This document shows, one piece after another, positions 18,579-64,000 of a stretch of 64,000 bases of DNA. The first letter of the stretch is position 1; each line of letters opens with the position of its first letter. Source of the DNA: Desulfofustis sp. PB-SRB1 (GTDB lineage Bacteria; Desulfobacterota; Desulfobulbia; Desulfobulbales; Desulfocapsaceae); NCBI GenBank assembly GCA_016722945.1, contig JAEQMT010000038.1, forward strand, positions 1 to 64,000, written 5' to 3'. Under the pieces are notes generated by a model that saw nothing but the letters and a program-made list of their open reading frames with translations, had not been told where the DNA came from and did not search any database. The position numbers and the translations under genes are program-made.

Positions 18579-18685
18579 TTACAGTATTTCGGTAATATAA
18601 CAAGATAGACAAACATGGCAACACCATTTTAGTGGTTTTGCGACCATTTCCGGGGGCCTCACCGATAATCTCAGACGGTTACACT

Positions 18686-18820
18686 TGATGAACTCGTAAA
18701 AACCTTGAATTTGCTTGCTGCCGTCATTCCCGCGAAAGCGGGAATCCAGTAATTTCAAATGATTATGGGTTTTGGCCCAACTCCACAATGACCGTAATTG
18801 GGTTTTTTACGACGCCATCA
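18686..18820. repeat. 135-bp palindromic repeat, family 1, copy 1
   Basis: It starts TGATGAACTCGTAAAAACC and ends GGTTTTTTACGACGCCATCA, so the ends are imperfect inverted repeats. The interior has the strong hairpin ATTCCCGCGAAAGCGGGAAT. It lies between the divergent glnB and efflux genes. The spacer from 18501 to 18965 otherwise holds only the glnB promoter and the leader of the efflux operon; small open frames across the repeat are not genes. Confidence 0.85.
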
Positions 18821-33811: not shown

Positions 33812-33973
33812 TGATGAACACATAAAAACCTTGAATTTGCTTGCAAACGTCATTCCCGCCCTCGATTACACCCTTCAAGGGCAGGCTTCAGCGGGAATCC
33901 AGTATTTTCGAATGATTATGGATTTCGGTTCAACTCCACAATGACCGTAATTGGGATTTTTACGAAGCCATCA
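33812..33973. repeat. Palindromic repeat, family 1, copy with insertion
   Basis: It begins TGATGAACACATAAAAACC and ends GGATTTTTACGAAGCCATCA. The central CCCGC...GCGGG hairpin is interrupted by about 30 extra bases (CCTCGATTACACCCTTCAAG and following). It fills the spacer 33678-33977, ends five bases before the glycosyltransferase start, and so must contain or abut that gene's promoter and leader. Confidence 0.8.
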
Positions 33974-45597: not shown

Positions 45598-45669
45598 CAC
45601 CGGTACCGTGGTTAAGTGGTCCAGAGTCGCGCACCGTTGCGCGGCAAATAAACATGAAAATAAGAATCA

Positions 45670-45804
45670 TGATGAATTCGTAAAAACCCTGATATTACTT
45701 GTTTTCGTCATTCCCGCGAAAGCGGGAATCCAGTAATTTCAAGCTGTTATAAATTCCGAGTCAGCTCCACCATGGCAGTAATAGATGTTTTTACGACTCC
45801 ATCA
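45670..45804. repeat. 135-bp palindromic repeat, family 1
   Basis: It begins TGATGAATTCGTAAAAACC, has the central hairpin ATTCCCGCGAAAGCGGGAAT and ends GTTTTTACGACTCCATCA. Same length and orientation as the copy at 18686. It follows the Kef operon. A small GCGC...GCGC hairpin precedes it near 45629-45643. Confidence 0.85.
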
Positions 45805-45894
45805 ACCTCAATGATGATGAAATATATGAAAAGATAAAAAAAGTAGTATTTACTATGGTTCAACAAAACACATTAATCCTATAACAATGCACTT

Positions 45895-47250: not shown

Positions 47251-47339
47251 ATCGAGTACGGAACCGGAAATGAAATACTTAGAATCCAACACAAAAGAGA
47301 AAAAACAACCTATGTAGACTCAAAAAAAAAGGTACACAT

Positions 47340-48566: not shown

Positions 48567-48682
48567 ATCGAGTACGGAACCGGAAGTAAACAAGACGCTG
48601 GGACACCGGCAGGCGGTGGCTTAGCGGAAAAAAATATATTGAGAATTAACTAAATGACAAAAACCAGAGAGGACCTATTAAT

Positions 48683-50434: not shown

Positions 50435-51703
50435 TTACCGCTCGACGAGGTGTTTGCCGGTGGAGCTACACGAACTATCGAGGTAGGTTTTGATATAATC
50501 GCTGAACCGTTCATGAAGATCATCAACTTCAATGCCGATCTCAGAGAGTGAGTGCTGAAATGTATACCGCTTGGACTGCTGGAGTACCGGGGTATTTTTG
50601 ATATCCCCTGAAAGCTCCCATCCCATCCAGCTATAAATTTTTTCCAGAGTAGCAATCGGTTTGTCAGTCACCTCCCGATAGCTTAGGTCAAGAATGCGGT
50701 TGTCGCTGAGCCCGAGCCGCGAGCGCTTGGCTGTCAATTCATTCAGGGTATTCTGCCACCGTGAAATCACCTGATGGATAAGAGGCTCCCGCGCCCGCGT
50801 GATACTAAACGAACTTTGCATCGTTGCCGTCAAACCAATCAACGATGGCAAAAACTCCGCGGGGTCTCGGTTGATCTGAACTAGCCTGGCATCAGGATAA
50901 ACCCGCAGCAATGACTCCAGCGAGAGTAAGTGAGCCGGCGCCTTTAACACCCAACGTTTAACCGGACGACCAAATTGCAAGTGTTGCAGGAATTTCTTAT
51001 GCCAACGATAAGCCTGAGTGTTATCGAGCTTTTCCTGCTGCGCTTGAAATTGCGGCAGCCGGTACACTGAGTCAAAGCGAATACTTTGAAACGCATAGCT
51101 CATGATCACAATGTCCTCCTGCGGCGATCTGGCTGCCAGGCGGTGCTTGCCGTGAAGGTTTCCGGTCAGACGATGGAAAAACCACAGCCCACGTGCCGCT
51201 TTACCAATGTTTGCTCTATCCGTTCGAGCATTGCTCCCGGGTCGCGGAAAAGGGCACATAATTTCCCAGTTGCGTGGTGCCCGGTTCGCCGCGTCAAGCG
51301 CCAGCAAACCGTGCAAATATGTGGTTGCTGCCCGCGGCAGGCCGATGATGATCAGCGGCTGCTCAATCGGCTCTTCATGTATCTCAGGATAGCTGGTAAG
51401 CTGCTCTTGCAAACGCAAACGCCCGCTCAAAAGGTTCAGTACGTCTCTTTTTGCCGCTGCTACGCCACATACGTTTAGTTCCGCTTCTTTCCGGAATGCT
51501 TCAATCAGTGAATGATAATGCGGTAGAAACTCAGGGTCGCCAAAATCATCCAAACCGCTAGCCTTTGAGGCCAATTCGAGCAGGTTTTCAGACGATTCAC
51601 TAAACCTGGGCCGCAGGCGTGCCGGCAATCGCGCAGTTGACTTTTTGACCACCTGCAGACCGGCGGTAACGGCAGAATTGGTTAATCTATTGAGGTTCAA
51701 CAT
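50435..51703 (-). CDS. PAPS-dependent sulfotransferase family protein (A)
   Basis: A 422-aa protein of the Sulfotransfer_3 type that would move a sulfuryl group from PAPS to a hydroxyl or amine. The 5'-phosphosulfate loop is QPLIIIGLPRAATTYLHGLL (residues 115-134) and the 3'-phosphate region RLVQINRDPAEFLPSLIGL. RSPQEDIVIMSYAF and RWVLKAPAHLLSLESLL are shared with other bacterial family members. No signal peptide, so cytoplasmic. It lies in the same direction as the aminotransferase gene upstream of it, separated by ~630 bp with a repeat. The substrate is unknown; proximity to hopanoid genes suggests a lipid or polyol hydroxyl. Confidence 0.8.
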   Translation of the reverse strand: MLNLNRLTNSAVTAGLQVVKKSTARLPARLRPRFSESSENLLELASKASGLDDFGDPEFLPHYHSLIEAFRKEAELNVCGVAAAKRDVLNLLSGRLRLQEQLTSYPEIHEEPIEQPLIIIGLPRAATTYLHGLLALDAANRAPRNWEIMCPFPRPGSNARTDRANIGKAARGLWFFHRLTGNLHGKHRLAARSPQEDIVIMSYAFQSIRFDSVYRLPQFQAQQEKLDNTQAYRWHKKFLQHLQFGRPVKRWVLKAPAHLLSLESLLRVYPDARLVQINRDPAEFLPSLIGLTATMQSSFSITRAREPLIHQVISRWQNTLNELTAKRSRLGLSDNRILDLSYREVTDKPIATLEKIYSWMGWELSGDIKNTPVLQQSKRYTFQHSLSEIGIEVDDLHERFSDYIKTYLDSSCSSTGKHLVER

Positions 51704-51803
51704 GAAAGCATGGTGCTATCGACGACAACAGGTGCCGCCGACTATTATCTAGCATCCCACGAGGGGCTAAGTGGTTGAAAATTATTGTGCCATTTTTAAT
51801 AGT

Positions 51804-51938
51804 TGATAAACTCGTAAAAACCTCTATTACCGTTATGGTGGAGTTGACCCGAAATCCATAATCAATTGAAATTACTGGATTCCCGCTTTCGCGGGAATGA
51901 CGAAAGCAAGCAATTTCAAGGTTTTTACGACGCCATCA
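51804..51938. repeat. 135-bp palindromic repeat, family 1, inverted copy
   Basis: TGATAAACTCGTAAAAACC at one end and GGTTTTTACGACGCCATCA at the other, with CTGGATTCCCGCTTTCGCGG in the centre: the interior is reversed relative to copies at 18686 and 45670. It lies between sulfotransferase A and the aminotransferase and probably separates their transcripts. Confidence 0.85.
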
Positions 51939-52333
51939 ATAGTTGCCTGCTTCAATTTTCTTCATTGTGATGGCAAAAGTCCACTTCTCAGGAATTACAT
52001 AAACGCTGAAAAGTTAGAATCTCTTAAAAATCTACGCGATTCAATCAATGAATACATCCCCCAATCCGGGGTATTGTGGGGTGTAATAGGGGGTGTTTTA
52101 AAACCCTGATGGAGCTCCCTAGGTAGAGTTGTATGAAGCTCGCTGATTCGTTGCGTGAGGTGGTAGAAGCCTGCGCATCTCATGTCGATTGCCTGATGCT
52201 GCACGGCGCCGTCATGGTGGTTGTTCGCACGTCGTGAAAAAGGGGGCATCGCAGTGCTCTCCAACCACCTGATCCTTGACGCCTCAAAGCCACAAAGAGA
52301 AGCAGGATAGGCCGGATGAGGCTTGACCGAACA
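51939..52333. other. Gene-free spacer before the aminotransferase stop
   Basis: Two short open frames cross here on opposite strands, but neither has a ribosome site or a recognisable family. Short clusters of G and C runs (CCCCCAATCCGGGG, TAGGGGGTG) are present. It is probably decayed sequence, perhaps left by the event that placed sulfotransferase A here. I see nothing else in it. Confidence 0.35.
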
Positions 52334-53734
52334 CTAGCGCGACGTGACGGAAAACTTCACCAGACGACTGGCTGTCGTCCAGGCAGGCCCGAGAAACCGG
52401 TGACAGGCCTCTAACACGGAACCGAAGGCCTCGAGGAAATAGGATGTGTCCTGGTCGGAAATTGTCAGTGGGGGCAGCAATTTGATAATATCCATGTTAT
52501 GGCCTGCCACCTGCGTGAGAATCCGGTAATCATCCATCAACGGCATGATAATTGACTGCGGGAAAAGACCGCCGTCAGCGGCATGAATGAGCTTCCAGGA
52601 AGACTTAAGTCCGAAAGATTTCGGCTGACACAGTTCAATGCCAATCATCAGTCCACGTCCTCGTACTTCTTTAACGAGCTCAAACCTCTCGGCCATTGCC
52701 CGCAGACCTGAAAGTAACGCAGCGCCTTGTTTGGCGGCATTTTCAGGTAGCCTTTCAGATTCGAGGATGTCCAGGGTCGCCAGTCCGCAAGCCATGGCCA
52801 ACCCTCCCTGACCAAAAGTCGAGGAATGGACAACGCAGCGGTCAAGGCTGGAAAAGACACGATGGTAGATCTCATCGCGCATCAGAACCGCGCCCACCGG
52901 CACCATCCCGCCGGAAAGCGATTTTGAAACCAGTAACAAGTCAGGCTTCAGCCCTTCAATATCATGAAACGCAAACATCTTCCCGGTGCGGCCCATACCT
53001 GTCTGCACTTCGTCAAGCACCACATACGCACCAAATTTTCGGCATAAATCCTGGGTAGCGAGCAGGTATTCATCGGTCGCCGGGAAAACACCCTTGCCCT
53101 GGATCGGTTCAACAAAAATCGCTGCCACATCCCCTTTGGCAAGTTCCTTTTCCATCACTTCAAGGTCCCCGAAAGGAATACAGTCCACGCCCGGAAGAAA
53201 AGAACCAAATCCCTCGCGAAAGCTGTTACACCCATTCATGGATAGTGAACCATAGCTCAGGCCATGAAAGGCCCGGTCAAAGTAGAGGATACGCTGCCGT
53301 CCAGTTGCACAGCGAACAAACTTCATGGCGGCCTCGGTACACTCCGCACCGGAGTTGGTGAATTGCACTTTCGATAAATGCGGGGCAAAACCGAGCAGCC
53401 TTTCGGCGAGCAAACCGGGCAGAAGCGAAGCCCCTAACTGCACTTTCCAGGGATCAAGCAAGTCAAGATAATCCTGGATCGTCTTGCCAATGACGGGGTG
53501 ATTTCGCCCGATGTTGAAGACTCCATAGGCTGAGAGAAAATCAAGATAACGATTACCGGCGGAATCCCAGAGATAGGCGCCCTCGGCGCGCACGTATTGC
53601 CTGTCGAAACCGATCGTGCGCAACACTTTCATCAGTTTGGGGTTGACGAATTTTTCGAACAGGTCAAACTGTTCGCTCCGCCGGTCTTGCACCAGCTTTT
53701 TCAGGTCAAATTTTTGAGTTTCTGTTATGTTCAT
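52334..53734 (-). CDS. Class III PLP aminotransferase, HpnO candidate
   Basis: A 466-aa aminotransferase of the ornithine/acetylornithine type. LWDSAGNRYLDFLSAYGV, QFTNSGAECTEAAMKF (phosphate site), FDRAFHGLSYGSLS, YVVLDEVQTGMGRTG and the PLP lysine in LLLVSKSLSGGMVPVG are all present. HpnO, the enzyme that converts a C35 hopanoid intermediate to aminobacteriohopanetriol, belongs to this class. The gene starts 87 bp from a divergent sulfotransferase that leads into hpnL and hpnN. Context therefore supports HpnO, but sequence alone does not exclude an amino-acid transaminase. Confidence 0.8.
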   Translation of the reverse strand: MNITETQKFDLKKLVQDRRSEQFDLFEKFVNPKLMKVLRTIGFDRQYVRAEGAYLWDSAGNRYLDFLSAYGVFNIGRNHPVIGKTIQDYLDLLDPWKVQLGASLLPGLLAERLLGFAPHLSKVQFTNSGAECTEAAMKFVRCATGRQRILYFDRAFHGLSYGSLSMNGCNSFREGFGSFLPGVDCIPFGDLEVMEKELAKGDVAAIFVEPIQGKGVFPATDEYLLATQDLCRKFGAYVVLDEVQTGMGRTGKMFAFHDIEGLKPDLLLVSKSLSGGMVPVGAVLMRDEIYHRVFSSLDRCVVHSSTFGQGGLAMACGLATLDILESERLPENAAKQGAALLSGLRAMAERFELVKEVRGRGLMIGIELCQPKSFGLKSSWKLIHAADGGLFPQSIIMPLMDDYRILTQVAGHNMDIIKLLPPLTISDQDTSYFLEAFGSVLEACHRFLGPAWTTASRLVKFSVTSR

Positions 53735-53821
53735 GATGATTATCCAGAACTAAAAACGAATGAATGAACACCAGATACAATACGTCAAGAGCACGTAACG
53801 TGCAAGGATCAGACGAATTCG

Positions 53822-54922
53822 ATGCCTGATCTGAAACATCCCTTGATGGGGGCAAACATTGCTACCCTTTTTGCCTCCATGCGCACCTATGGAGGGGTAG
53901 ATAGAAAATACTGGCCGTACGCGGCTTGTTTTGCCGGAGCAGCGGTTGCTCGTCTGCCTTTCACCCTGCTTGAACGCATTAGTGCGGCCAATCTCAAACA
54001 AGAGGAGGATGAGGGTTGTAGACCAATCTTTATCGTCGGACACTGGCGCTCGGGAACGACCCACCTGCACAACCTGCTGGCCTGCTCACCGGAGTTTGGC
54101 ATTATTACCCCATTGGCCTCCGGTCTCCCATGGGAGTTGTTAACCCTGGCCAGGTGGCTGCAACCGCTGCTGACCAGGTCGCTGCCGGAAAACCGGGGGG
54201 TCGACAACGTTGCCGTAACGATTGATTCTCCACAGGAAGATGAGATACCGCTGGCCAGTATGCAATTGCTTTCAGTCTTCCACGCCCTTTACTACCCCGG
54301 GAACTTTCGGCGAATTTTCGAAAAAACGGTGTTTTTCGAAGGTGCCACCGAAACGGAAGTTGCTCACTGGCGTCAGAGCATGCTCTATTTTTTCGGCAAA
54401 GTCAGAAAGCATCAAAACGGCAAAGTCCCGTTAATAAAAAATCCAGCCCACACCGCCCGGGTGAGACACCTGCTGAAGATTTGGCCGCGGGCACGCTTCA
54501 TTCATATCTATCGCAACCCATACACCGTATATCAATCGACGCTTCACTACTACCGGAAGCTCTTGCCGGAGCTCTCACTGCAGACATTCGCCTGGCAAGA
54601 CATTCAGGAAACAGTGCTTCACTGTTACCCTCGATTACTGGACCGTTTTTATTCAGATGTCGAAGGACTGCCGGCAGACAGGGTGATAGAAATTCGCTTT
54701 GAAGATCTGGAAGAAAACCCGTTAGACGCCATTGAGGAAATCATGCATATCTTCCAACTCGGGTCGCGGCATGAAACACGTAAAAATATTACCGCATATC
54801 TTGAGCGGATAAAAGATTACCGCAAAAACAAGTTGCACTACTCGGCCCAGAACCTCGGGCTGGTCCGCACCCATTGGGGCGCGTATCTGCGCCGGTGGAA
54901 TTATCAAATACCCACATGGTGA
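53822..54922 (+). CDS. PAPS-dependent sulfotransferase family protein (B)
   Basis: A 366-aa cytoplasmic sulfotransferase, only distantly related to protein A. The PAPS loop is PIFIVGHWRSGTTHLHNLL (residues 68-86), and the 3'-phosphate site FIHIYRNPYTVYQSTLHYY (R-N-P-x3-V-x2-S). The SPQEDEIPLASM block and IKNPAHTARVRHLLKIWP mirror the SPQED and LKAPAH blocks of protein A. The N-terminus has a short amphipathic stretch (LPFTLLERISAANL) that may touch membranes. Divergent from the aminotransferase and followed by hpnL 140 bp downstream. The acceptor is unknown; a hopanoid polyol or amino-hopanoid is the working idea. Confidence 0.82.
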   Translation: MPDLKHPLMGANIATLFASMRTYGGVDRKYWPYAACFAGAAVARLPFTLLERISAANLKQEEDEGCRPIFIVGHWRSGTTHLHNLLACSPEFGIITPLASGLPWELLTLARWLQPLLTRSLPENRGVDNVAVTIDSPQEDEIPLASMQLLSVFHALYYPGNFRRIFEKTVFFEGATETEVAHWRQSMLYFFGKVRKHQNGKVPLIKNPAHTARVRHLLKIWPRARFIHIYRNPYTVYQSTLHYYRKLLPELSLQTFAWQDIQETVLHCYPRLLDRFYSDVEGLPADRVIEIRFEDLEENPLDAIEEIMHIFQLGSRHETRKNITAYLERIKDYRKNKLHYSAQNLGLVRTHWGAYLRRWNYQIPTW

Positions 54923-54944
54923 TGATGTTGGGGAAACGTTTGGG

Positions 54945-55025
54945 CCACGAAATATGACTCCGGCCCGCGGTGAAATTTCTCGCACGCTTGATCGTGAACG
55001 AACATTCTCATTTTTCAAAGCCCCC
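54945..55025. repeat. Partial family 2 repeat joined to a family 1 end
   Basis: GGTGAAATTTCTCGCACGC, TTGATCGTGAACGAACATTC and CATTTTTCAAAGCCCCC match the right half of the element at 26342-26482. The left half is weak. Directly after it, TTACGAGTTCATCA (55026-55039) is the outer end of a family 1 repeat. The two families are thus fused in one spacer, just before hpnL. Confidence 0.55.
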
Positions 55026-55063
55026 TTACGAGTTCATCATTTATTGCAAGACCAGCACCGTTT

Positions 55064-56032
55064 ATGAACACTATTCGATCTGTATCAATAATTTTTGGAG
55101 TGGCCGGTTTGTGTCTGATCTTCTGGCTGCTGCACAAAGAAGGGGTCAGCACCATCGGTGCTGTTTTTTCTCTGGTCGGGATAAACATTATCTGGATGGT
55201 TCTCTACCGCGTCGTTCCCATCGTTATCGATGGTGCCGGGTGGAGGCTGCTCTTCAGCGGCGGGGCACGACCCGGCCTTAGGCTGGTATCCATGGCCCGG
55301 TGGCTTGGTGAATCGGTTAACACCCTGCTTCCCGTGGGGCAGGTTGGCGGCCATTTCGTCAGGGCTCGAGTTGTTGCCGAGCGTTACACGGGAAAAGATG
55401 ACCCAAGCGCCACGGTAACGGTGGATTTCACGATCGGTCTGTGGACCCAGATAATTTTTATTATCATCGGTCTGGGGCTCCTCGTCGCAAACACCGGGCA
55501 GTACCGCGATATGGCGAGTATGATCTACGGCGTGAGCGTAGCAATTCTAGCGGTCGGCGGTTTCGTACTCGTGCAAAAAGGTGGGTTGTTCTCCTTCGGG
55601 GCCAGAGGACTCGGCTTATTTCTTGGCGCCGGCCGCACCGAAGGCATGGGTAACAGGGCTCTGGAGCTTGATCAAAAAATCAGGGAACTGTACGCCCGCA
55701 GGCGCGATTGTTTACACGCCGGTTTCTGGCGTTTGATCGGCTGGATGGCGAAATCGGGGGAAAACTGGATTTTTTTTTATTTCGCCGGAGTCGAGGTTAA
55801 TCTTCAGACGATACTTATTCTCGAGAGCCTGAGCGGCGCCCTGCGCAGCGCCGCCTTTTTCGTACCGGGCGGTCTTGGCGTGCAAGATGGCGGATTGGTG
55901 GTTATCGGATCTCTTCTTGGCCTTGATTCAGCCAGTGTAATGGCACTGGCTGTTGCCAAGAGATTGAGAGAACTCCTGATCGGGGTACCGGGGATAGTAT
56001 GGTGGATACGTCTTGAGGGCGCCCGAAGATGA
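55064..56032 (+). CDS. hpnL: HpnL-family membrane protein (hopanoid-associated)
   Basis: A 322-aa integral membrane protein of the UPF0104/flippase-like superfamily, with about eight helices (SIIFGVAGLCLIFWLL, IGAVFSLVGINIIWMVLY, QIIFIIIGLGLLVANTG and others). The motif GQVGGHFVRARVVAER and the C-terminal FFVPGGLGVQDGGLVVIG followed by AKRLRELLIGVPG are typical of the hopanoid-linked HpnL group. The role is not settled; lipid flipping or hopanoid localisation is proposed. It overlaps hpnN by four bases (ATGA). Confidence 0.85.
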   Translation: MNTIRSVSIIFGVAGLCLIFWLLHKEGVSTIGAVFSLVGINIIWMVLYRVVPIVIDGAGWRLLFSGGARPGLRLVSMARWLGESVNTLLPVGQVGGHFVRARVVAERYTGKDDPSATVTVDFTIGLWTQIIFIIIGLGLLVANTGQYRDMASMIYGVSVAILAVGGFVLVQKGGLFSFGARGLGLFLGAGRTEGMGNRALELDQKIRELYARRRDCLHAGFWRLIGWMAKSGENWIFFYFAGVEVNLQTILILESLSGALRSAAFFVPGGLGVQDGGLVVIGSLLGLDSASVMALAVAKRLRELLIGVPGIVWWIRLEGARR

Positions 56033-58713
56033 GAGGCTTCAAAAATATGAGACACTCAGAACCATACCTGCCATCATGGTGGATAGCATGGGTTCTGAAT
56101 CATTCCGCCGGGTTTCTCACGGCGATGGTTCTGGTGACCATAGTCGTGGTATATTTTACCGTCACCAATTTCAAGATAAACGCGGATCTCGCCGACATGG
56201 TCGCCGACGATCTCCTCTTTCGGCAGATCGCCAAAGCCTATCAAGCCGAATTTCCAGAACTGGTCAATCCGCTGGTAGTGGTAATCGAAGGTGACATTGC
56301 CGAGCAGGTACGCGAAGTCAGACAACAACTCGGCAGACGTCTCGAAGAGCATCCCGACGCCTTCACATCCGTTTACATGCCGGGCGGCGGAGAGTTTTTC
56401 GATACCAACGGGCTTCTCTATCTGAGCGTTGAGGAGTTAGAGGAATATGGAGATGTTATCGCCGGAATACAGCCGTTTCTGGCAATGCTGGCCGATGATA
56501 TTTCACTGCCTCGCCTTTTTTCCGTGCTTGCATCCATCGTGGAAAACGAAGACGCTCAGATGGCCGGCAGCGGAGACTTGACACGTTTGCTCAATGCCCT
56601 TCGCGTCAGCTTTGATGCCGCGCGAGCAGGACGCATCGAGCCTGTCTCATGGCAAAACCTTATCCGCGACAACGACACCGCCAGGAGCACTTTCACCCAA
56701 TTAATTATCGTCCAGGCCGCCGCCGGCACGGGTACCGCGAATCCATACAAGCGGGAAATCAGTCTTATTCGAAGTCTGGCAGCCGATCTCGAGATACCTC
56801 AGTATTTTGAGGTTACCATCGGCATCACCGGTAACCCCGCGATAAATTACGAGGATCTGCGCAGCGTTCGCGTCGACATCGGTTTTGCATCGGCCCTCTC
56901 ACTGCTGCTTGTCGGCATAACCCTTTACTGCGGCCTCGGGTCGCTCAGGCTGGTGACCATCAGCCTGGCGACCCTGACCATTGGCCTTGCCTGGAGCGTC
57001 GGATTCGCGATCCTGCTGGTGGGCAGGCTCAACATGATCTCGGTAACCTTCATCGTACTGTTTATCGGGCTGGGCATCGATTATGCCATCCAGATAACCC
57101 TGCGCTACCTCGAATTCCTAGATGCCGGCCATACTCGCACGGAGGCGATTAAATCGGCGGTTACAAAAACCGGCAATGCCTTGATCATCTGTTCCATTTC
57201 AACCGCCATTGGCTTTTACGCCTTCGTTCCCACCGACTATGTCGGCGCCTCGGAACTGGGTCTGATTTCCGGAACGGCCATGCTGATAATTCTTTTTATC
57301 AGCGTTTCGGTACTCCCGGCCATGCTTAATCTGTTTGCTCCCAGAAACAGTAAAGCCGCGCCGGTGCGGATCGGCGCCTTTCTCCCCTCGCTACTGCGCC
57401 GCTACAGCCGCGTTATCCTCAGTGGCGCCGTCATCATGGGAGTGTGGTCGGCACTCCTTCTGCCTCATTTTACCTTTGACACCAACCCCCTCAATCTCTC
57501 AGACCCGAAGTCAGAAGCGGTGCGCACCGCCATGCGCCTTTTCGCCGACAATCGAAATTCACTATGGACCATTAGCGTGGTGACGGATTCCAGAGAGCAC
57601 GCGCAAAAGCTGGCTGGAAAACTTGAAGAACTCCCCGAGGTTGATTTAGCCTTGACCCTTGATGATTTTATTCCAGCCGACCAGGACATCAAACTTGATC
57701 AGATTGAATACATCGCGCTGAGCTTACCGGAATTCTCTGATGACATTTCGGCCCGATCCCGAAATGTGCCGGATGAGACCAGAGCCGCACTGGAAAAACT
57801 GAGCGAGGTGCTGATAGCCCTGAAGGTCGATGACAACGGCGATACGTCCATGCAGTCGGCGGCACACCTTCTTGCCGAATCAATCGACAGGTTTCTGGAA
57901 CCCCCCACCGGCCGACAAGATTATGCCCGACTGAACGAGGCCCTGATCCCCAATCTGAAGGTTCTGACCCGGACTTTACAACAGCAGACGGGGGCCGACC
58001 AGATCGGCACCGACCAATTGCCGCAAAACCTGTACCGGCAATATGTTTCGGCAAACGGCCGCTATCGAATCCAGGTGTTTCCAAAAGATGATCTGCGTGA
58101 TCCGGCCGCCCTGCGGCAATTTGTTACGGCGTTGCAAGATGTTGCGCCGCGCGCCACCGGCCAGCCGGTAAATATCCTGGGATCAGCCGATACGATCTAC
58201 ACCGCCTTCACCAGCGCCCTGATCACCGCTATCGTTCTGATTGCTTTGTTTTTGCTGGCGATAACACGTCGACCACTCGAGGTTGTCCTTGTTCTCGCGC
58301 CGCTCATCCTGGGAATTGGCTATGCCATGGCGGCAACGGTGCTGCTGAACATACCGTTAAATTTCGCCAACATCATCGCAATTCCTCTATTGCTGGGCAT
58401 CGGTGTCGATTATAGCCTGCATGTTCTGCACCGGTTGAAAGAGGAGGGAAGTGGTGATAACTCCGGCCGCTCTCCCTTCGGAGTTCTCACCACCAGCACA
58501 GCCCGCGGTATCCTTTTTAGCGGGCTGACGACGGTTATGAGTTTTGGCTCGCTGTCGTTTATCGGACATGCCGGCACAGCGAGCATGGGCAAGCTTTTAA
58601 CGATCAGCGTGCTAACGATGATTTTCTGCACGCTTGTTGTATTGCCCGCTTTTCTCGAGCAGTTTGAAAGGCTGTTTGACCGGCTCCGCTCACCTGCCGC
58701 CATAAACCGCTGA
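56029..58713 (+). CDS. hpnN: HpnN, MMPL/RND-type hopanoid transporter
   Basis: An 894-aa inner-membrane RND/MMPL protein. One N-terminal helix (AGFLTAMVLVTIVVVYF) and a periplasmic domain precede a block of helices with FIVLFIGLGIDYAIQITLRY. A second periplasmic domain and helix block follow, with IAIPLLLGIGVDYSLHVLHR. The paired GxGxDY motifs carry the proton-coupled aspartates. HpnN moves hopanoids to the outer membrane in other bacteria. Coupled to hpnL; it ends four bases from the convergent hpnM. Length agrees with the family. Confidence 0.92.
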   Translation: MRGFKNMRHSEPYLPSWWIAWVLNHSAGFLTAMVLVTIVVVYFTVTNFKINADLADMVADDLLFRQIAKAYQAEFPELVNPLVVVIEGDIAEQVREVRQQLGRRLEEHPDAFTSVYMPGGGEFFDTNGLLYLSVEELEEYGDVIAGIQPFLAMLADDISLPRLFSVLASIVENEDAQMAGSGDLTRLLNALRVSFDAARAGRIEPVSWQNLIRDNDTARSTFTQLIIVQAAAGTGTANPYKREISLIRSLAADLEIPQYFEVTIGITGNPAINYEDLRSVRVDIGFASALSLLLVGITLYCGLGSLRLVTISLATLTIGLAWSVGFAILLVGRLNMISVTFIVLFIGLGIDYAIQITLRYLEFLDAGHTRTEAIKSAVTKTGNALIICSISTAIGFYAFVPTDYVGASELGLISGTAMLIILFISVSVLPAMLNLFAPRNSKAAPVRIGAFLPSLLRRYSRVILSGAVIMGVWSALLLPHFTFDTNPLNLSDPKSEAVRTAMRLFADNRNSLWTISVVTDSREHAQKLAGKLEELPEVDLALTLDDFIPADQDIKLDQIEYIALSLPEFSDDISARSRNVPDETRAALEKLSEVLIALKVDDNGDTSMQSAAHLLAESIDRFLEPPTGRQDYARLNEALIPNLKVLTRTLQQQTGADQIGTDQLPQNLYRQYVSANGRYRIQVFPKDDLRDPAALRQFVTALQDVAPRATGQPVNILGSADTIYTAFTSALITAIVLIALFLLAITRRPLEVVLVLAPLILGIGYAMAATVLLNIPLNFANIIAIPLLLGIGVDYSLHVLHRLKEEGSGDNSGRSPFGVLTTSTARGILFSGLTTVMSFGSLSFIGHAGTASMGKLLTISVLTMIFCTLVVLPAFLEQFERLFDRLRSPAAINR

Positions 58714-58717
58714 ATCA

Positions 58718-59368
58718 TTATTCCTCGTCACGGAGCCCCTGAATCTTTTCATCCAGGTTACGCAGCAGCCCTTGCGGCCCCTCTGCTTTCAGGACTGCTT
58801 TGATCTGCGCACGGGACTGCGATAGCTGGCTTACGCCACCGATCTGAATATCGATAATCCGCCACCGATCCGAAGCATTCACCAGGATGTAGTGGAAGGT
58901 GGTGGATTTTTTATCGTTTTCCAGGGTGCTCGTTACCCGCCGATACTTCTCTCGATATATCTCGGTCGTATCAATCGTAAAGCGATGATTGTTGTACTTA
59001 TCAAAGCGAGCCACATAGGTGCCCACCGACCACTCAATATACTTTTCCAGTAGCGCGGCGCGCTCGGCCTCATCCATTTCCAGCCAGTAACTCCCAGATG
59101 ATTTTCGCAGCATGAATAAGAAATAAAAGGCGTTCCGCATGACCGGTTCAAGAATCTCGTAACGTTGTTCAAAAGTGAGTTCCGAGGAACGTTTCATGAT
59201 CTCCAGCAAGGCCGCATTGGTCTCCCGGATGACGGTTTCAACCGGATTCGCCGTCACCGGCTCGGCTGTTGCGGAGTATGGACTGGCACCGCAGCACAAC
59301 AGCAGAATAGTGAACCACACTGTTCTCAATAGCCATGCTGGGCAGAGCCGGAATGCGGGACAACTCAT
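58718..59368 (-). CDS. hpnM: HpnM, periplasmic MlaC/Ttg2D-like hopanoid protein
   Basis: A 216-aa exported protein. Its signal is LLRTVWFTILLLCCGASPYS, ending near the TAEP junction. The mature part is the MlaC/Ttg2D lipid-carrier fold (EQRYEILEPVMRNAFYFLFM, YIEWSVGTYVARFDKYNNH, DRWRIIDIQIGGVSQLSQSR). Such proteins ferry phospholipids or hopanoids across the periplasm. Convergent with hpnN, with which it presumably works; usually the two are co-directional, so local order has been rearranged. Divergent from ispH across a ~200-bp AT-rich promoter region. Confidence 0.85.
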   Translation of the reverse strand: MSCPAFRLCPAWLLRTVWFTILLLCCGASPYSATAEPVTANPVETVIRETNAALLEIMKRSSELTFEQRYEILEPVMRNAFYFLFMLRKSSGSYWLEMDEAERAALLEKYIEWSVGTYVARFDKYNNHRFTIDTTEIYREKYRRVTSTLENDKKSTTFHYILVNASDRWRIIDIQIGGVSQLSQSRAQIKAVLKAEGPQGLLRNLDEKIQGLRDEE

Positions 59369-59566: not shown

Positions 59567-60496
59567 GTGAAAGTCCTTCTTGCCAATCCCCGCGGTTTCT
59601 GCGCCGGGGTAAAACGGGCCATCGCTATCGTTGAAGAGTCCTTAAAAAAATACGGCGCCCCGGTTTACGTCTTGCACGAAATTGTCCATAACACCCATGT
59701 CGTAAACACACTCGCCGAAAAAGGTGCGCTGTTTGTGGAGACGCTGGAAGAAATACCGCCCGGTTCAGTGACCATTTTCAGCGCCCATGGAGTTTCCAAG
59801 GCCGTTGAGGAAAAGGCGGCAGAGCTGGCTCTAAACACCATAGATGCCACGTGTCCGCTGGTGCAAAAGGTGCATCGCCGGGTCGCCCGACTGAGCGAAG
59901 AAGGATTTGACGTGCTCATCATCGGTCATAAAAATCATCCGGAAATTGAAGGGACATGCGGACGCGCCACCGGACGGATTCACGTGATTTCACGATCCGA
60001 AGATGTGCACCAACTGCCGATCGATAACACCTCACGGGTCGGATATGTCACTCAGACAACCCTGAGTATGGATGACGCGGCCGAAATCATCACCCTCTTC
60101 AAGAAGAGGTTTCCCGATATAAACGCACCTGCCCACACCGACATTTGTTATGCCACTCAGAACCGTCAGCTAGCGGTACGCAGCCTCGCCCCTCAGGTAG
60201 ATCTTTTTCTCGTGGTGGGTTCGAAAAACAGCTCCAATTCCAATAGACTGCGTGAAGTCGCTGAAAAAAACGGGACCACGGCATATCTCATCGACAGTGT
60301 CAAAGACATTGATCCCGTCTGGCTTTCAGGCGCGGAGGTTATTGGCGTGACGGCGGGTGCATCGGCGCCGGAATCGCTGGTGGAAGAGGTTGTGGTATGG
60401 CTGCGGCAAAGATGTGACATCAGCATGGAAGAAATAGATGGGATCACCGAACATACCCTGTTCACCTTCCCTGATCTCGTTGAAATTGCAAAATGA
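59567..60496 (+). CDS. ispH: HMBDP reductase IspH
   Basis: A 309-aa iron-sulfur enzyme that makes IPP and DMAPP in the last step of the MEP pathway, supplying the C5 units of squalene and hopanoids. The three cluster cysteines are C12 (RGFCAGVKRA), C96 (IDATCPLVQKVH) and C194 (DICYATQNRQ); the catalytic glutamate lies in HPEIEGTCG (E126). SAHGVSK and SSNSNRLRE are conserved. The start is GTG. It leads a run with DUF116 and hpnH, so precursor supply is tied to hopanoid side-chain synthesis. Confidence 0.95.
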   Translation: MKVLLANPRGFCAGVKRAIAIVEESLKKYGAPVYVLHEIVHNTHVVNTLAEKGALFVETLEEIPPGSVTIFSAHGVSKAVEEKAAELALNTIDATCPLVQKVHRRVARLSEEGFDVLIIGHKNHPEIEGTCGRATGRIHVISRSEDVHQLPIDNTSRVGYVTQTTLSMDDAAEIITLFKKRFPDINAPAHTDICYATQNRQLAVRSLAPQVDLFLVVGSKNSSNSNRLREVAEKNGTTAYLIDSVKDIDPVWLSGAEVIGVTAGASAPESLVEEVVVWLRQRCDISMEEIDGITEHTLFTFPDLVEIAK

Positions 60497-60508
60497 CAAG
60501 CGATACCT

Positions 60509-61378
60509 ATGAAGCCGCTCGATCTCACCACCTTAGACACGTTTGACCTTGAGGACCGCCAAGTAGGCAAAGCCAAAAAACGGCTGTTCGTCGGCCTGGT
60601 CGTGGGAGCGGGCGCCGGTGTCGTGGCCTTTCTGTTTACGACCCTTATCCTTCCACTGGTAGGCCTCAAATCGCTGCATCCGTGGGCGCCCTATATCTTT
60701 ACCATCGGCGTTTTGGGAATGGCGCTGGTGGTAATCTGGGCGACCCTTGGCCTTGTGCTCAACATCATGTTCGGCCATTCTCTGCTGTTTTTCAGCAAAA
60801 TCAGGGGATTAACCATCAAACTCTATCTACCGCTCGTGGTACTGGTGGGAAAATCCCTTGGTATATCAAAGGACCGGGTCCGCTCGTCGTTTGTCAAGGT
60901 CAACAATGACCTGGTGAGCATATCCACCAAGAAATATAAGCCGGAAGAGTTGCTGATGCTGATGCCGCATTGTTTACAGAACTCGCGGTGCAAAATGCGC
61001 CTTACCTATTCGATGGACAACTGTAAACGCTGCGGGCTCTGCCCCATTGATGAGCTGCTCACTATCAGCGAGGAGTATGGTATTCACCTGGCGGTTGCCA
61101 CCGGCGGTACGATTGCCAGAAGAATCGTCGTCCAGAGGCGGCCGAAAATGATCATCGCGGTAGCCTGTGAGCGTGACTTGGCAAGCGGCATTCAGGATAC
61201 CTATCCAATCCCCGTATACGGCGTGCTCAACGCCCGCCCCCATGGTCCTTGTCTTGACACCACGGTTGCCAAGGCAGGCCTTGAGGCCGCCATACACAAG
61301 TTTATGGACCCCGCCTTCTTACCCGGCGGCCAAGACGCCGACATGAAGCAGCAGGCGTCGGTGGCGAGCGCCGCATAA
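60509..61378 (+). CDS. DUF116 membrane protein with cysteine cluster
   Basis: A 289-aa protein with two or three N-terminal helices (FVGLVVGAGAGVVAFLFTTL, YIFTIGVLGMALVVIWATL) and a cytoplasmic C-terminal domain of the DUF116 type. Seven cysteines stand out: C155, C161, the C172-x2-C175-x2-C178 group (NCKRCGLCPI), C220 (AVACERDLASG) and C248 (PHGPCLD). They could bind an iron-sulfur cluster or zinc. The function is unknown. It lies 12 bases after ispH and 48 before hpnH, so a role in isoprenoid or hopanoid metabolism, perhaps electron supply, is inferred. Confidence 0.8.
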   Translation: MKPLDLTTLDTFDLEDRQVGKAKKRLFVGLVVGAGAGVVAFLFTTLILPLVGLKSLHPWAPYIFTIGVLGMALVVIWATLGLVLNIMFGHSLLFFSKIRGLTIKLYLPLVVLVGKSLGISKDRVRSSFVKVNNDLVSISTKKYKPEELLMLMPHCLQNSRCKMRLTYSMDNCKRCGLCPIDELLTISEEYGIHLAVATGGTIARRIVVQRRPKMIIAVACERDLASGIQDTYPIPVYGVLNARPHGPCLDTTVAKAGLEAAIHKFMDPAFLPGGQDADMKQQASVASAA

Positions 61379-61426: not shown

Positions 61427-62446
61427 ATGGGCATTCCCCTTCTCCAACAACGGCGTATCGGTATGTATATCGCCGGCCAACTGCTCCGTGGCCAATCACG
61501 GTTCCCACTGGTTCTCATGCTTGAACCACTTTTTCGCTGCAACCTCAAGTGTAAGGGTTGCGGCAAGATCAGCCAGCCGCCAGAGATACTGGCCAAACAT
61601 CTCTCCGTCCAGGAATGCGTCGATGCCGCGGAGGAGTGCGGGGCGCCGGTGGTCAGTATTGCCGGAGGAGAACCACTGCTTCACCCTGATATTGAAACGA
61701 TTGTAGAGCAACTAGTCGAACGCAAGCGTTTTGTCTACTTGTGTACCAACAGTTTGCTGCTTGAAAAAAAAATGGAGGGTACGCCCGGATTTCGCCCCAG
61801 CCCTTATCTAAGTTTCAATATCCATTTCGACGGCCTGGCCGAACGCCATGACGCGGCCGTCTGCCTGGAGGGCGCTTTCGAGCGTGCCTCAAAAGCAATT
61901 TCCATGCTGGTTTCGGCCGGTTTTCGGGTGACAACCAACACGACTTTCTTCAAGGGCCAAACCTTTGAAGACGCTGCCGCGCTTTTTGACCATCTCACCT
62001 CGCTGGGAGTGGAAGCAATGACCGTTGCCGCCGGGTTCAATTACGAAAACGCCGCCGACCAGGATAACTTTCTCGGCCGCGAAGGCACCAGAAAACTCTT
62101 CCGCGAGATATTACAGAGAAAAAAACCATCATGGACATTTAACCATTCTGCCATGTACCTCGACTTTCTTGCCGGCAATCAAAACCTGGCCTGCACACCG
62201 TGGGGCAACCCGACCCGAAGCGTGTTGGGGTGGCAACGCCCCTGCTATCTTCTCAATGACGGATATGTATCGAGTTACCGGGAACTCATGGAGGACACTG
62301 ACTGGAGCAATTACGGCCAGGGTAACAACCCCCGCTGCGCGCATTGTATGCTCCACTGCGGGTTCGAGCCCAGCGCCGTGGTTGAGACCATGAGAAAACC
62401 GTGGAAGGCGGCTATGCTTGCTCTGCGTGGTCCGGGACGGAAGTAA
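61427..62446 (+). CDS. hpnH: Adenosyl-hopene transferase HpnH (radical SAM)
   Basis: A 339-aa radical-SAM enzyme that joins the 5'-deoxyadenosyl moiety of SAM to hopene, giving the first C35 hopanoid. The cluster motif is RCNLKCKGCGKI (C38-x3-C42-x2-C45), with the family-typical GCGKI. SIAGGEPLLHPDIE is the SAM-binding GGEP loop. The C-terminal NPRCAHCMLHCGFEPSAV has extra conserved cysteines. Its 3' end overlaps the convergent hpnG by 35 bases. Presence of hpnH predicts extended (C35) hopanoids. Confidence 0.93.
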   Translation: MGIPLLQQRRIGMYIAGQLLRGQSRFPLVLMLEPLFRCNLKCKGCGKISQPPEILAKHLSVQECVDAAEECGAPVVSIAGGEPLLHPDIETIVEQLVERKRFVYLCTNSLLLEKKMEGTPGFRPSPYLSFNIHFDGLAERHDAAVCLEGAFERASKAISMLVSAGFRVTTNTTFFKGQTFEDAAALFDHLTSLGVEAMTVAAGFNYENAADQDNFLGREGTRKLFREILQRKKPSWTFNHSAMYLDFLAGNQNLACTPWGNPTRSVLGWQRPCYLLNDGYVSSYRELMEDTDWSNYGQGNNPRCAHCMLHCGFEPSAVVETMRKPWKAAMLALRGPGRK

Positions 62447-63233
62447 GCCGATTTCTATAAAAATCGTCTAACGGCGCCTGAATTATGGGCCACGTCCTTC
62501 TCAGGGAAGCCATTGCCACGGAAAAATCCCTGGCCACCCGCACGGCGCCGACAATAAGCCATGGATTCTTGAGAACAGCGACGAGCATTCGGAGCGGCCG
62601 ACCGTTTCCTTCAGGATCGACTCCTTTCAGTAACCTCCCGTCAAGGGAGCGTTCGGCGGGATCGCATATTACCCTGACTGAAAAGAAGGGGAGCGATTGG
62701 GCAGCCGCCGCGGCGGCCGCTCCACCGCTTTCCATATCCACCGCGATGGCGCCGGTTGTACCATGCGCCGCCGCTTTTTCAGAAGCAGTGAGCAGCGGTT
62801 TAGCGCTGCACAAAATGGCGCCGCGTCGATAGGTGATACCGCTTACTCGTAGGGCCGTTTCGAGCTTTTCCAGTAATTTCTCATCAGGTAAATATTTGTG
62901 ATACTTGGTATTTTTCCCCGCTACGGACTCAATGATCCGTTCCGCTAAAACGATGGCTCCACGCGGCAGGCCCGGCGCCAGGCCGCCACTGATGCCAATA
63001 CTGCCCACCCCCCAGGCGTCAGCTAAGGCGGTGCCGTGAAACACCCGCTCGCGTCCCATGCCGCACTGGACAGTGCGGATATGGAGGGCTCGCCGGGCCG
63101 CTCGATATTCTTGCGGACCATGCCCAAGTTGGGTATGACGGCCGGCCACATCGGCACCTGCGGTAGACTTGATCGCTTTGGCCTCGGCGGCCAGGGCGGT
63201 GAGCACGACAAGAAGTGAGCGATCAGGTTGCAT
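62412..63233 (-). CDS. hpnG: HpnG, adenosylhopane nucleosidase/phosphorylase
   Basis: A 273-aa member of the nucleoside phosphorylase/nucleosidase fold (as in MTA/SAH nucleosidase) that removes adenine from adenosylhopane, leaving a ribosyl-type hopanoid. It has GMGRERVFHGTALADAWG, GISGGLAPGLPRGAIVLAE, and the substrate-binding IAVDMESGGAAAAA with the M-E pair. Divergent from squalene-hopene cyclase, convergent with hpnH. The unusual opposed arrangement of hpnH and hpnG is noted separately. No strong ribosome site is seen before the ATG at 63233. Confidence 0.88.
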   Translation of the reverse strand: MQPDRSLLVVLTALAAEAKAIKSTAGADVAGRHTQLGHGPQEYRAARRALHIRTVQCGMGRERVFHGTALADAWGVGSIGISGGLAPGLPRGAIVLAERIIESVAGKNTKYHKYLPDEKLLEKLETALRVSGITYRRGAILCSAKPLLTASEKAAAHGTTGAIAVDMESGGAAAAAAAQSLPFFSVRVICDPAERSLDGRLLKGVDPEGNGRPLRMLVAVLKNPWLIVGAVRVARDFSVAMASLRRTWPIIQAPLDDFYRNRLTSVPDHAEQA

Positions 63234-63364: not shown

Positions 63365-64000
63365 ATGGACGCTACAACCCTTAATAATGCAATCGAACAA
63401 GCCATTGCCTGGTTGATGGGTGCGCAACACCAGGACGGATATTGGGTGGGTAACCTGCAATCCAACTCCTGCATGGAGGCGGAGTGGGTTCTTGCCATGT
63501 ATATCCTCGGCGTTCTCGCCGATCCCAAATACGATGGGGTCGTCAAAGCAATCCTTCACGACCAGCGGGCCGACGGCTCCTGGGAAATTTATTACGATGC
63601 GCCGGCCGGCGATATCAACGCGACGGTGGAATCGTATGCGGCACTGAGGGTTGCTGGAGTGGACAAAAACAGTGATCCGATGATCAGGGCGAGAGAGTGG
63701 ATTTTTGCTCACGGCGGTCTCGGTGGTGTGCGGGTGTTCACCAAGTATTGGCTGGCCCTCATCGGCGAATGGCCGTGGGATCGTACCCCGGCACTCCCCC
63801 CGGAAATCTTCTTCATCCCGCGCTGGGCGCCGTTTAACATCTACAAGTTCGCCACCTGGGCGCGGGCGACCATGCTGCCCCTGTCGATTCTGACCGCCCG
63901 CCGTCCGGTGCATCGGCTCCCTGATAATTTGCGTATGGATGAGTTGTTTCCCGAAGGCAGGGAACATTTCAACTACCGGTTGCCGCGAAAAAAACGGTGG
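63365..64000 (+). CDS. shc: Squalene-hopene cyclase, 5' part (runs off the window)
   Basis: The first 212 codons of a squalene/hopene cyclase, open to the right edge. The N-terminus MDATLNNAIEQAIAWLMGAQ with QDGYWVGNL, CMEAEWVLAMYILG and the QW-type repeat QRADGSWEIYYDAPAGDIN are the usual start. EWPWDRTPALPPEIFFIP and PFNIYKFATWARATMLPLSI follow. The catalytic DxDD region lies beyond the window. The enzyme cyclises squalene to hopene or hopanol, the founding step for all the hpn genes to its left. It is divergent from hpnG across a ~130-bp promoter region. Confidence 0.95.
   Translation, partial: MDATTLNNAIEQAIAWLMGAQHQDGYWVGNLQSNSCMEAEWVLAMYILGVLADPKYDGVVKAILHDQRADGSWEIYYDAPAGDINATVESYAALRVAGVDKNSDPMIRAREWIFAHGGLGGVRVFTKYWLALIGEWPWDRTPALPPEIFFIPRWAPFNIYKFATWARATMLPLSILTARRPVHRLPDNLRMDELFPEGREHFNYRLPRKKRW

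What the first reader, a model, noticed from the sequence alone, without database searches (positions are those of the whole stretch)
50435..56032. Two sulfotransferases flank an HpnO-like aminotransferase beside hopanoid genes: candidate sulfated amino-hopanoid pathway
Seen: sulfotransferase A, a class III aminotransferase, sulfotransferase B, then hpnL and hpnN, in a stretch of about 8 kb. Known: hpnH/hpnG make the C35 side chain, and an aminotransferase of this class (HpnO) makes aminobacteriohopanetriol. Inference: the two PAPS-dependent enzymes act on the hydroxyls or amine of that side chain, giving a sulfated hopanoid exported by HpnN/HpnL. I know of no described sulfo-hopanoid pathway. 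The two sulfotransferases are diverged from each other, so they may act on different positions.
Basis: partly seen in the sequence, partly recalled or inferred. Interest (0 to 1): 0.75.

Follow-up and report, generated by a model that had tools for sequence, protein, structure and literature searches.

The report
Sulfotransferases built into hopanoid gene clusters
In relatives of sulfate-reducing bacteria, some Nitrospira and Azospirillum brasilense, genes for enzymes that attach sulfate groups sit inside the gene clusters for hopanoids (the bacterial counterparts of cholesterol), which suggests a negatively charged, sulfated hopanoid that we did not find described.

Summary
STA and STB, the only PF13469 sulfotransferases found in this genome, flank an aminotransferase that groups with hopanoid-cluster aminotransferases (HpnO-type), beside hpnL-hpnN-hpnM-ispH-hpnH-hpnG-shc. 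The link recurs in three phyla. In a second Desulfobulbia family a sulfotransferase sits beside hpnL in 7 of 9 hpnN genomes (all 7 whose contigs allow a view). In one Nitrospira family 5 of 147 genomes have hpnN; the same 5 have an STA-like sulfotransferase directly downstream. STB's closest relatives found (41-42%) lie between hpnM and hpnN in 7 of 7 Azospirillum brasilense-group plasmids read, strain Sp7 included. Controls: 0 of 40 and 0 of 33 other hpnN loci. The enzymes fall in three separate groups, so recruitment was probably repeated. Best reading: PAPS-dependent sulfation of the hopanoid side chain, likely on oxygen, before HpnN export. The product is inferred. A published survey found no Rohmer-degradation products in Sp7 despite its genes, and only adenosylhopane by direct analysis; this fits an overlooked product but does not prove it.

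The parts
50435..51703 (-). STA: Sulfotransfer_3 enzyme (422 aa), relative of the sulfotransferase downstream of hpnN in Nitrospira
   Evidence: PF13469 110.6 bits; 35-37% to the Nitrospira STs; PAPS-type motifs GLPRAATT and RDPAEFLPS (motif roles recalled)
52334..53734 (-). HpnO-type class III aminotransferase (466 aa)
   Evidence: PF00202; 48.8% to the AT of a Streptomyces hop cluster; 48-51% to ATs at 11 Pseudomonadota hpnN loci, in one clade with support 99/99
53822..54922 (+). STB: Sulfotransfer_3 enzyme (366 aa), 141 bp upstream of hpnL, same strand
   Evidence: PF13469 117.3 bits; closest relatives found, 41-42%, lie in hopanoid clusters of seven Azospirillum plasmids
55064..56032 (+). 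hpnL
   Evidence: TIGR03476 268.7 bits, over cut-off
56029..58713 (+). hpnN, RND hopanoid transporter
   Evidence: TIGR03480 843.8 bits, over cut-off
58718..59368 (-). hpnM-like (MlaC family)
   Evidence: PF05494; TIGR03481 145.4 bits, under its cut-off of 160.1
59567..60496 (+). ispH
   Evidence: NF002188 444.5 bits, cut-off 420
60509..61378 (+). DUF116 protein, conserved between ispH and hpnH
   Evidence: PF01976 185 bits; 65-70% where aligned over most of its length in f2-family clusters
61427..62446 (+). hpnH, adenosylhopane synthase
   Evidence: TIGR03470 502 bits, over cut-off
62412..63233 (-). hpnG-like phosphorylase
   Evidence: TIGR03468 139.4 bits, under its cut-off of 187.1
63365..64000 (+). 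start of shc (squalene-hopene cyclase); continues past the window to 65365 of the contig
   Evidence: 43% to Streptomyces shc and 70-74% to f2 shc; frame read, start codon chosen by eye

Best explanation
The locus makes a C35 hopanoid carrying a sulfate group. Shc, HpnH and HpnG make ribosylhopane; the HpnO-type aminotransferase can aminate its end to aminobacteriohopanetriol, or it is reduced to bacteriohopanetetrol. One or both PAPS-dependent sulfotransferases then transfer a sulfuryl group to a side-chain hydroxyl (O-sulfation more likely than N-sulfation), and the charged lipid is moved to the outer membrane by HpnN/HpnL/HpnM. Shown by sequence: the gene set, the families, PAPS-type motifs, an APS kinase in the genome, and recurrent linkage to hpnL/hpnM/hpnN in three phyla by three groups of sulfotransferases. 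Inferred: that the acceptor is a hopanoid, which atom is sulfated, the order of steps, and export.
For: (1) STA and STB are the only PF13469 genes found in the genome and both lie beside hpnL-hpnN. (2) f2 family: 9 of 73 genomes have hpnN; in 7 a sulfotransferase is next to hpnL; in 3 of those 7 its other neighbour was checked and is an HpnA-like epimerase. (3) Nitrospira family: hpnN in 5 of 147, ST in the same 5; the five hpnN genes, and a truncated second hpnN copy, each have the ST 107-337 bp downstream; in G192 it is the only PF13469 gene. (4) Azospirillum: 7 of 10 Azospirillum records with an STB relative are the A. brasilense group at 41-42%; in 7 of 7 the ST lies between hpnM and hpnN, with HpnA-like, shc and hpnH close by. 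(5) Controls: 0 of 40 and 0 of 33 hpnN loci. (6) The linked STs fall in three separated groups. (7) In Nitrospira G217 the order hpnM-hpnN-ST-AT repeats the window's STA+AT pair. (8) STB's clade (98/97) holds only STs of hopanoid or crtI-type C30 clusters among the rows used. (9) APS kinase in 10 of 10 genomes tested, in G194 only as short fragments. (10) 7 of 8 f2 rows have a hydrophobic N-terminal stretch (hydropathy 2.4-2.9). (11) A. brasilense Sp7 has hpn genes yet gave no Rohmer products, only adenosylhopane by direct analysis (PMC12583986, passages).
Against: No lipid, enzyme or expression data for a sulfated product. The Sp7 result has the authors' simpler explanation (only adenosylhopane is made). 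Profiles do not give the acceptor of Sulfotransfer_3 enzymes; three Azospirillum relatives and one Palleronia relative of STB sit in crtI clusters instead. G187 (f2) has hpnN and no ST match, though its contig ends just upstream of hpnL; G176's ST is on a separate contig. Nitrospirota loci L138 and L142 have hpnN without an ST. Most hpnN loci elsewhere have none. STA has RAATT where relatives have R[ST]GTT or R[ST]GST, sits on a long branch, and its tie to the Nitrospira STs (90/95) is unresolved. The hydrophobic N-terminus is not seen in STA, STB or the Nitrospira STs (0.8-1.4). Genomes within each group are close relatives, so counts are not independent. Both predicted structures were poor.
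Confidence: 0.65

Rival explanations
1. The sulfotransferases act on another envelope lipid or glycan (for example a glycolipid or a C30 apocarotenoid) that shares regulation or the HpnN/HpnL export route with hopanoids; the hopanoid itself is not sulfated.
For: Some STB relatives (37-40%) lie after a glycosyltransferase in crtI-type clusters. Sulfotransfer_3 enzymes elsewhere lie near polyketide or CysDN genes.
Against: No crt, polyketide or glycosyltransferase gene was seen between the bla genes and shc in the window. In f2 and in the A. brasilense group the ST lies among hpn genes. Three ST groups converge on the same place.
Confidence: 0.17
2. Sulfated amino-hopanoid: aminobacteriohopanetriol is the substrate, sulfated on nitrogen (sulfamate) or on a hydroxyl to give a zwitterion. 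This is a special case of the best explanation.
For: STA and the HpnO-type aminotransferase are neighbours on one strand in the window and again in Nitrospira G217.
Against: f2 genomes G026, G141, G155, G162 and G176 have the ST but no AT match at E <= 1e-60. Four of the five Nitrospira genomes have no AT in the fetched neighbourhood, and the G217 AT frame is interrupted. No AT was seen in the seven Azospirillum clusters.
Confidence: 0.2
3. Hitchhiking: the sulfotransferases sit in a transferred island and have no part in hopanoid chemistry.
For: The bla-to-shc block is bracketed by a 544-bp direct repeat of the kefC end, has GC 0.528 against 0.568 for 12001-45127, and no other f1 genome is among the seven with hpnN.
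Against: The link recurs in another family and two other phyla with STs from different groups; passive carriage does not predict that.
Confidence: 0.08

Closest known systems
Hopanoid (hpn) biosynthetic cluster with HpnO (Rhodopseudomonas palustris TIE-1, Streptomyces)
   Same: shc, hpnH, hpnG-like, hpnL, hpnM-like, hpnN and an aminotransferase that groups with hopanoid-cluster aminotransferases; HpnO forms aminobacteriohopanetriol (PMC12583986, passages; PMC3883690, passages).
   Different: Two sulfotransferases are added; none was found at 33 Pseudomonadota hpnN loci. The Alphaproteobacteria survey PMC12583986, which included A. brasilense Sp7, says no obvious candidate genes near hpn clusters were evident beyond hpnA, hpnB, hpnL and hpnM (passages).
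Sulfotransfer_3 (PF13469) enzymes of crtI-type C30 clusters (Azospirillum oryzae, A. ramasamyi, A. lipoferum, Palleronia)
   Same: STB is 37-40% identical and falls in one clade with them; Palleronia's cluster holds two squalene/phytoene synthase genes.
   Different: Those clusters hold a crtI pair, an acyltransferase and a GT2; the window holds hopanoid genes. No characterised function was found in the calls made.
Sulfotransfer_3 proteins with solved structures 2z6v and 2zq5 (mycobacterial, recalled)
   Same: STA matches both (E 7e-37 and 8e-36); same sequence family.
   Different: Listed only as 'putative uncharacterized protein'; no link to hopanoids was looked for.

Membership tests
PAPS-dependent sulfotransferase (PF13469) | Profile match over the curated cut-off | tested here: met
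   STA 110.6 and STB 117.3 bits, cut-off 27; four f2 and three Nitrospira STs 91-152 bits
PAPS-dependent sulfotransferase (PF13469) | 5'-phosphosulfate loop and 3'-phosphate motif (roles recalled) | tested here: met
   R-x-x-T-T and R-x-P....S columns kept in STA, STB and the f2, Nitrospira and Azospirillum rows aligned; STA has RAATT, less typical
PAPS-dependent sulfotransferase (PF13469) | PAPS supply in the cell | tested here: met
   APS kinase PF01583 over cut-off in 10 of 10 genomes, the window's included (E 2.3e-53); G194 by short fragments only. Azospirillum not tested
PAPS-dependent sulfotransferase (PF13469) | Sulfuryl transfer to a hopanoid | not testable with these tools
   needs an enzyme assay
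HpnO | Class III aminotransferase | tested here: met
   PF00202 282 bits
HpnO | Groups with hopanoid-cluster aminotransferases, apart from acetylornithine/ornithine enzymes | tested here: met
   Clade 99/99 with Streptomyces, Pseudomonadota, Nitrospira and Desulfobacterota hop-linked ATs; one Rhizobium phosphonate-cluster AT also falls inside. Ornithine and acetylornithine models shown (best 25 of 69 families) are all below cut-off; no such enzymes were put in the tree
HpnO | Direct comparison with the genetically characterised HpnO of R. palustris TIE-1 | not tested
HpnO | Makes aminobacteriohopanetriol | not testable with these tools
PigE (prodigiosin aminotransferase) | NF053554 cut-off of 850 bits | tested here: not met
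   405.9 bits
HpnN | TIGR03480 cut-off | tested here: met
   843.8 over 751.85
HpnN | NF052374 (hopanoid transporter HpnN, equivalog) cut-off | tested here: not met
   611.1 against 1100
HpnL | TIGR03476 cut-off | tested here: met
   268.7 over 195.65
HpnM / HpnG | TIGR03481 / TIGR03468 cut-offs | tested here: not met
   145.4 against 160.1; 139.4 against 187.1; best model in both cases, so called -like

The most novel reading that the evidence does not exclude
Sulfated hopanoids exist as a lipid class: anionic bacteriohopanepolyols made in Desulfobulbia, Nitrospira and the Azospirillum brasilense group, with sulfotransferases of three groups recruited to the hopanoid cluster; they have been overlooked, A. 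brasilense Sp7 being a cultured case whose expected side chains are missing from standard analyses. The window's organism, with two sulfotransferases and an HpnO-type enzyme, may make a zwitterionic amino-sulfate form.
Probability: 0.6. Interest if true: 0.87.

Novelty: new variant of a known kind. Interest (0 to 1): 0.78.

Why it matters
Hopanes are major molecular fossils of bacteria (recalled), and the link from gene to head group decides how they are read. A sulfated head group would be a new anionic, sterol-sulfate-like bacterial lipid, expected here in anaerobes of the sulfur cycle, nitrite oxidisers and a plant-associated nitrogen fixer (lifestyles recalled). It could be missed by periodate cleavage, which needs two neighbouring free hydroxyls (PMC12583986, passage), and by positive-mode analysis (inference). 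The idea names genes and exact ions ([M-H]- 625.414 for sulfated bacteriohopanetetrol, 624.430 for sulfated aminotriol), and a cultured strain, Sp7, in which to look.

Tried and rejected
Chance neighbourhood: rejected by recurrence in other genomes.

Aminotransferase as ornithine/acetylornithine or PigE enzyme: rejected (those shown are below cut-off; hopanoid-linked clade). A second aminotransferase group at 33-37% identity in the class (L087, L088, L090-L096) sits in a different neighbourhood with no clear hopanoid hits; in L091 a neighbour matched hpnN weakly (27% over 165 residues). It was set aside.

One single hopanoid-linked sulfotransferase clade: rejected; at least 4 label changes are forced (one Nitrospira copy without hpnN is counted as unlinked). 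A first tree carried one misframed row (f2_G026), corrected. In some searches the A. brasilense row was labelled unlinked because that record has no annotation; on checking this report I read its neighbours, found the hopanoid cluster, read six more records and rebuilt the tree. Because of this I raised the confidence from 0.60 to 0.65, the novel case from 0.55 to 0.60 (its interest from 0.85 to 0.87) and the interest from 0.74 to 0.78, and lowered two rivals (0.20 to 0.17 and 0.10 to 0.08).

My earlier idea that STB's closest relatives act on carotenoids: true only for the next-closest (38-40% Azospirillum, 37% Palleronia).

Structures: AlphaFold models of STB and STA were poor (mean pLDDT 44 and 49), so no fold search was made.

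Fisher values: 5.7e-5 for ST presence against hpnN in the class (6 of 7 against 24 of 185; matches pooled by me) and 1.9e-9 for Nitrospira. The pooled adjacency value (13 of 13 against 0 of 73) used groups chosen after seeing the data and is not used as a test. None corrects for relatedness.

The ST profile was built from 17 STs including STA, STB and four hpn-linked f2 STs, so its scores on those are circular; Pfam was the independent check.

Literature (open PMC papers only): hopanoid + sulfotransferase, 13 papers, all listed; hopanoid + sulfated, 15 of 26 listed; bacteriohopanepolyol + sulfate ester, 0; six phrases such as 'sulfated hopanoid', 0; at least three of five terms, 0; Nitrospira + hopanoid + hpnN, 1; hopanoid/Desulfobulb/hpn, 12 of 128 listed. 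No sulfated hopanoid appeared in the titles and abstract openings listed. Passages were read in PMC12583986, PMC3883690 and PMC5462960; no paper was read whole.
Full report
WHAT IS THERE. The stretch holds, in order, STA (50435-51703, -), a class III aminotransferase (52334-53734, -), STB (53822-54922, +), hpnL and hpnN. Downstream come hpnM-like, ispH, a DUF116 gene, hpnH, hpnG-like and shc; shc runs past the window to 65365 of the contig. STB ends 141 bp before hpnL on the same strand. The aminotransferase and STB start 87 bp apart, divergently. STA lies 630 bp downstream of the aminotransferase on the same strand. STA and STB are the only PF13469 matches in the 4.69-Mb genome.

ORGANISM. 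The class is Desulfobulbia, inferred because relatives found by the hpnN scan carry titles such as 'Desulfobulbaceae bacterium' and are the same contigs as class members of the genome search (L130 = G141:C299, L129 = G187:C54).

THE AMINOTRANSFERASE. It is 48.8% identical over 99% of its length to an aminotransferase in a Streptomyces hopanoid cluster that includes hpnE, shc, hpnH, ispG and dxs. It is 48-51% identical to aminotransferases at 11 Pseudomonadota hpnN loci and groups with them, with support 99/99, apart from a second group of class aminotransferases. One Rhizobium aminotransferase from a phosphonate cluster also falls in that clade. None of the ornithine, acetylornithine or PigE models shown reaches its cut-off. 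I call it HpnO-type; a named, characterised HpnO was not available for comparison.

IS THE SULFOTRANSFERASE LINK REAL? First test, same class. In 192 genomes hpnN was found in 7. Pooling the matches of STB (27 genomes) and STA (26), 6 of those 7 have a sulfotransferase against 24 of the other 185. More telling is position. A wider search of one family (f2) gave hpnN in 9 of 73 genomes. In 7 of the 9 a sulfotransferase lies directly beside hpnL, divergent from it: G026, G155, G141, G342, G343 (cut by the contig end), G344, and G162, whose ST contig carries the start of hpnL. In G176 the ST is on a short contig beside an HpnA-like gene and hpnL is on another. In G187 the contig ends just upstream of hpnL and no ST match was seen. 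In the four genomes checked (G162, G176, G342, G344) the gene on the other side of the ST is an HpnA-like epimerase (298-318 bits, below the cut-off of 367.65), so there the ST lies among hopanoid genes. These STs are PF13469 members but only about 24% identical to STA or STB.

Second test, Nitrospira. The hpnN scan of named genomes returned 17 loci; 8 of 17 show an ST: six of nine Desulfobulbaceae-type loci, the other three ending at hpnL or hpnN, and two Nitrospira loci (L139, L143), where an ST 35-36% identical to STA follows hpnN. Without an ST are L138 and L142 (Nitrospirota), L140 and L141 (contigs end soon after or within hpnN), L144, and L145 (hardly an hpnN). In the family of L139, 147 genomes were searched twice: hpnN (E <= 1e-60) is in 5 and the ST (E <= 1e-20) in the same 5. 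The five hpnN genes, and a truncated second hpnN copy in G293, each have the ST 107-337 bp downstream on the same strand; a seventh ST copy (G329 C4) has no hpnN in its 20 kb. In G192 this ST is the only PF13469 gene. In G217 the next gene is an aminotransferase, 48% and 52% identical to the window's in two pieces, so the STA+AT pair recurs; its frame is interrupted in the assembly.

Third test, Azospirillum. STB's closest relatives found in the plasmid collection are from Azospirillum (10 records, 38-42%). Seven belong to the A. brasilense group (41-42%). In 7 of 7 the ST lies in a hopanoid cluster: HpnA-like (-), hpnM-like (-), ST (+), hpnN (-), shc (+), hpnH (-) (for strain MTCC4038; for six more, Sp7 included). 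HpnH and shc are over their cut-offs; hpnN was identified by 33-34% identity to the window's. An unassigned stretch of about 1.1 kb lies between ST and hpnN. The other three records (A. oryzae, A. ramasamyi, A. lipoferum; 38-40%) and one Palleronia (37%) instead hold crtI, crtI, acyltransferase, GT2 and ST. So this branch of the family is tied to C30 isoprenoids either way.

Controls. Elsewhere in the phylum 66 other hpnN-like places were listed. Of these 40 were read (all 20 over the HpnN cut-off and 20 of 46 below it): 0 have a sulfotransferase; 32 had at least 3 kb on both sides. Of 53 Pseudomonadota places 33 were read: 0 have one; 28 had at least 3 kb on both sides. The link is thus rare in general and concentrated in the groups named.

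SEVERAL RECRUITMENTS. The hopanoid-linked sulfotransferases do not form one clade; at least four label changes are forced by well-supported branches. The f2 enzymes form one clade (100/100). STB groups with the A. brasilense and crtI-cluster enzymes (98/97). STA and the Nitrospira enzymes fall in a third, wider group; they were joined with two others at 90/95, but this is unresolved. Distantly related sulfotransferases at the same locus argue for shared function rather than inheritance.

MECHANISM. The three groups keep the R-x-x-T-T and R-x-P....S motifs (roles recalled), although STA has RAATT. APS kinase is present in 10 of 10 genomes tested, in one only as fragments. Seven of eight f2 rows have a strongly hydrophobic N-terminal stretch, which suits a membrane substrate; STA, STB and the Nitrospira enzymes do not. 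Known steps (PMC12583986, passages): HpnH and HpnG give ribosylhopane, HpnO makes aminobacteriohopanetriol, HpnN moves hopanoids to the outer membrane, and the role of HpnL is not established. I infer that a sulfotransferase acts on the side chain before export. O-sulfation is favoured because most linked clusters read show no aminotransferase.

A CULTURED CASE. The same survey grew A. brasilense Sp7. It reports hpn genes but no Rohmer-degradation products, and by direct UHPLC-HRMS only adenosylhopane; the authors take adenosylhopane as the explanation (passages). Loss of free neighbouring hydroxyls through sulfation would also block that degradation. This is compatible with, not evidence of, a sulfated product.

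ISLAND. The 19.7 kb from just after kefC to just after shc is bracketed by a 544-bp, 91.5% direct repeat of the kefC end. It has GC 0.528 against 0.568 for 12001-45127. No other f1 genome is among the seven with hpnN. The block, with three beta-lactamase-fold proteins, probably arrived as a unit.

LIMITS. No chemistry was seen. The acceptor, the position and the number of sulfates are inferred. Counts within each group are not independent. Both structure predictions were too poor to use. No paper on sulfated hopanoids was found in the searches made, which cover open PMC papers only.

Noticed in passing
window 45128-45671 and contig 65388-65921 (1388-1921 of L078): 544-bp direct repeat (91.5%) of the kefC 3' end brackets the whole bla-to-shc block of 19.7 kb: likely integration or duplication scar of a hopanoid island.
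   Followed up: partly
window 46024-49987: Three beta-lactamase-fold (PF00144) proteins; the first two are tandem duplicates, 82% identical in DNA. The third has a weak match to 3-succinylated cholic acid synthase (52.8 bits, cut-off 800), a possible but unproven hint of acyl transfer to a triterpenoid.
   Followed up: partly
window 18685-18812, 33812-33973, 45670-45806, 51802-51938; contig 70640-70801: Dispersed element of about 130 bp; one copy abuts the kefC repeat and an inverted copy lies between STA and the aminotransferase.
   Followed up: no
window 60509-61378: DUF116 protein conserved between ispH and hpnH in f2 hopanoid clusters; candidate unknown hopanoid or isoprenoid gene.
   Followed up: no
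L080, L234, L240, L294: HpnO-type aminotransferase next to an HpnN-like RND protein in other genomes; in L234, L240 and L294 hpnH is also in the stretch.
   Followed up: no
L117-L125 (other Desulfobulbia): Another sulfotransferase clade of about 370 aa, in most loci beside a protein of about 570 aa and proteins resembling histidine kinases (inferred from shared hits), with no hopanoid genes seen.
   Followed up: no
L253, L262, L264, L265: Sulfotransferases in Azospirillum and Palleronia crtI-type C30 clusters suggest sulfated carotenoids.
   Followed up: partly
L300 10001-11089 (A. brasilense Sp7 plasmid): Sulfotransferase inside the hopanoid cluster of a cultured strain whose expected C35 side chains were not found in a published survey.
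   Followed up: partly
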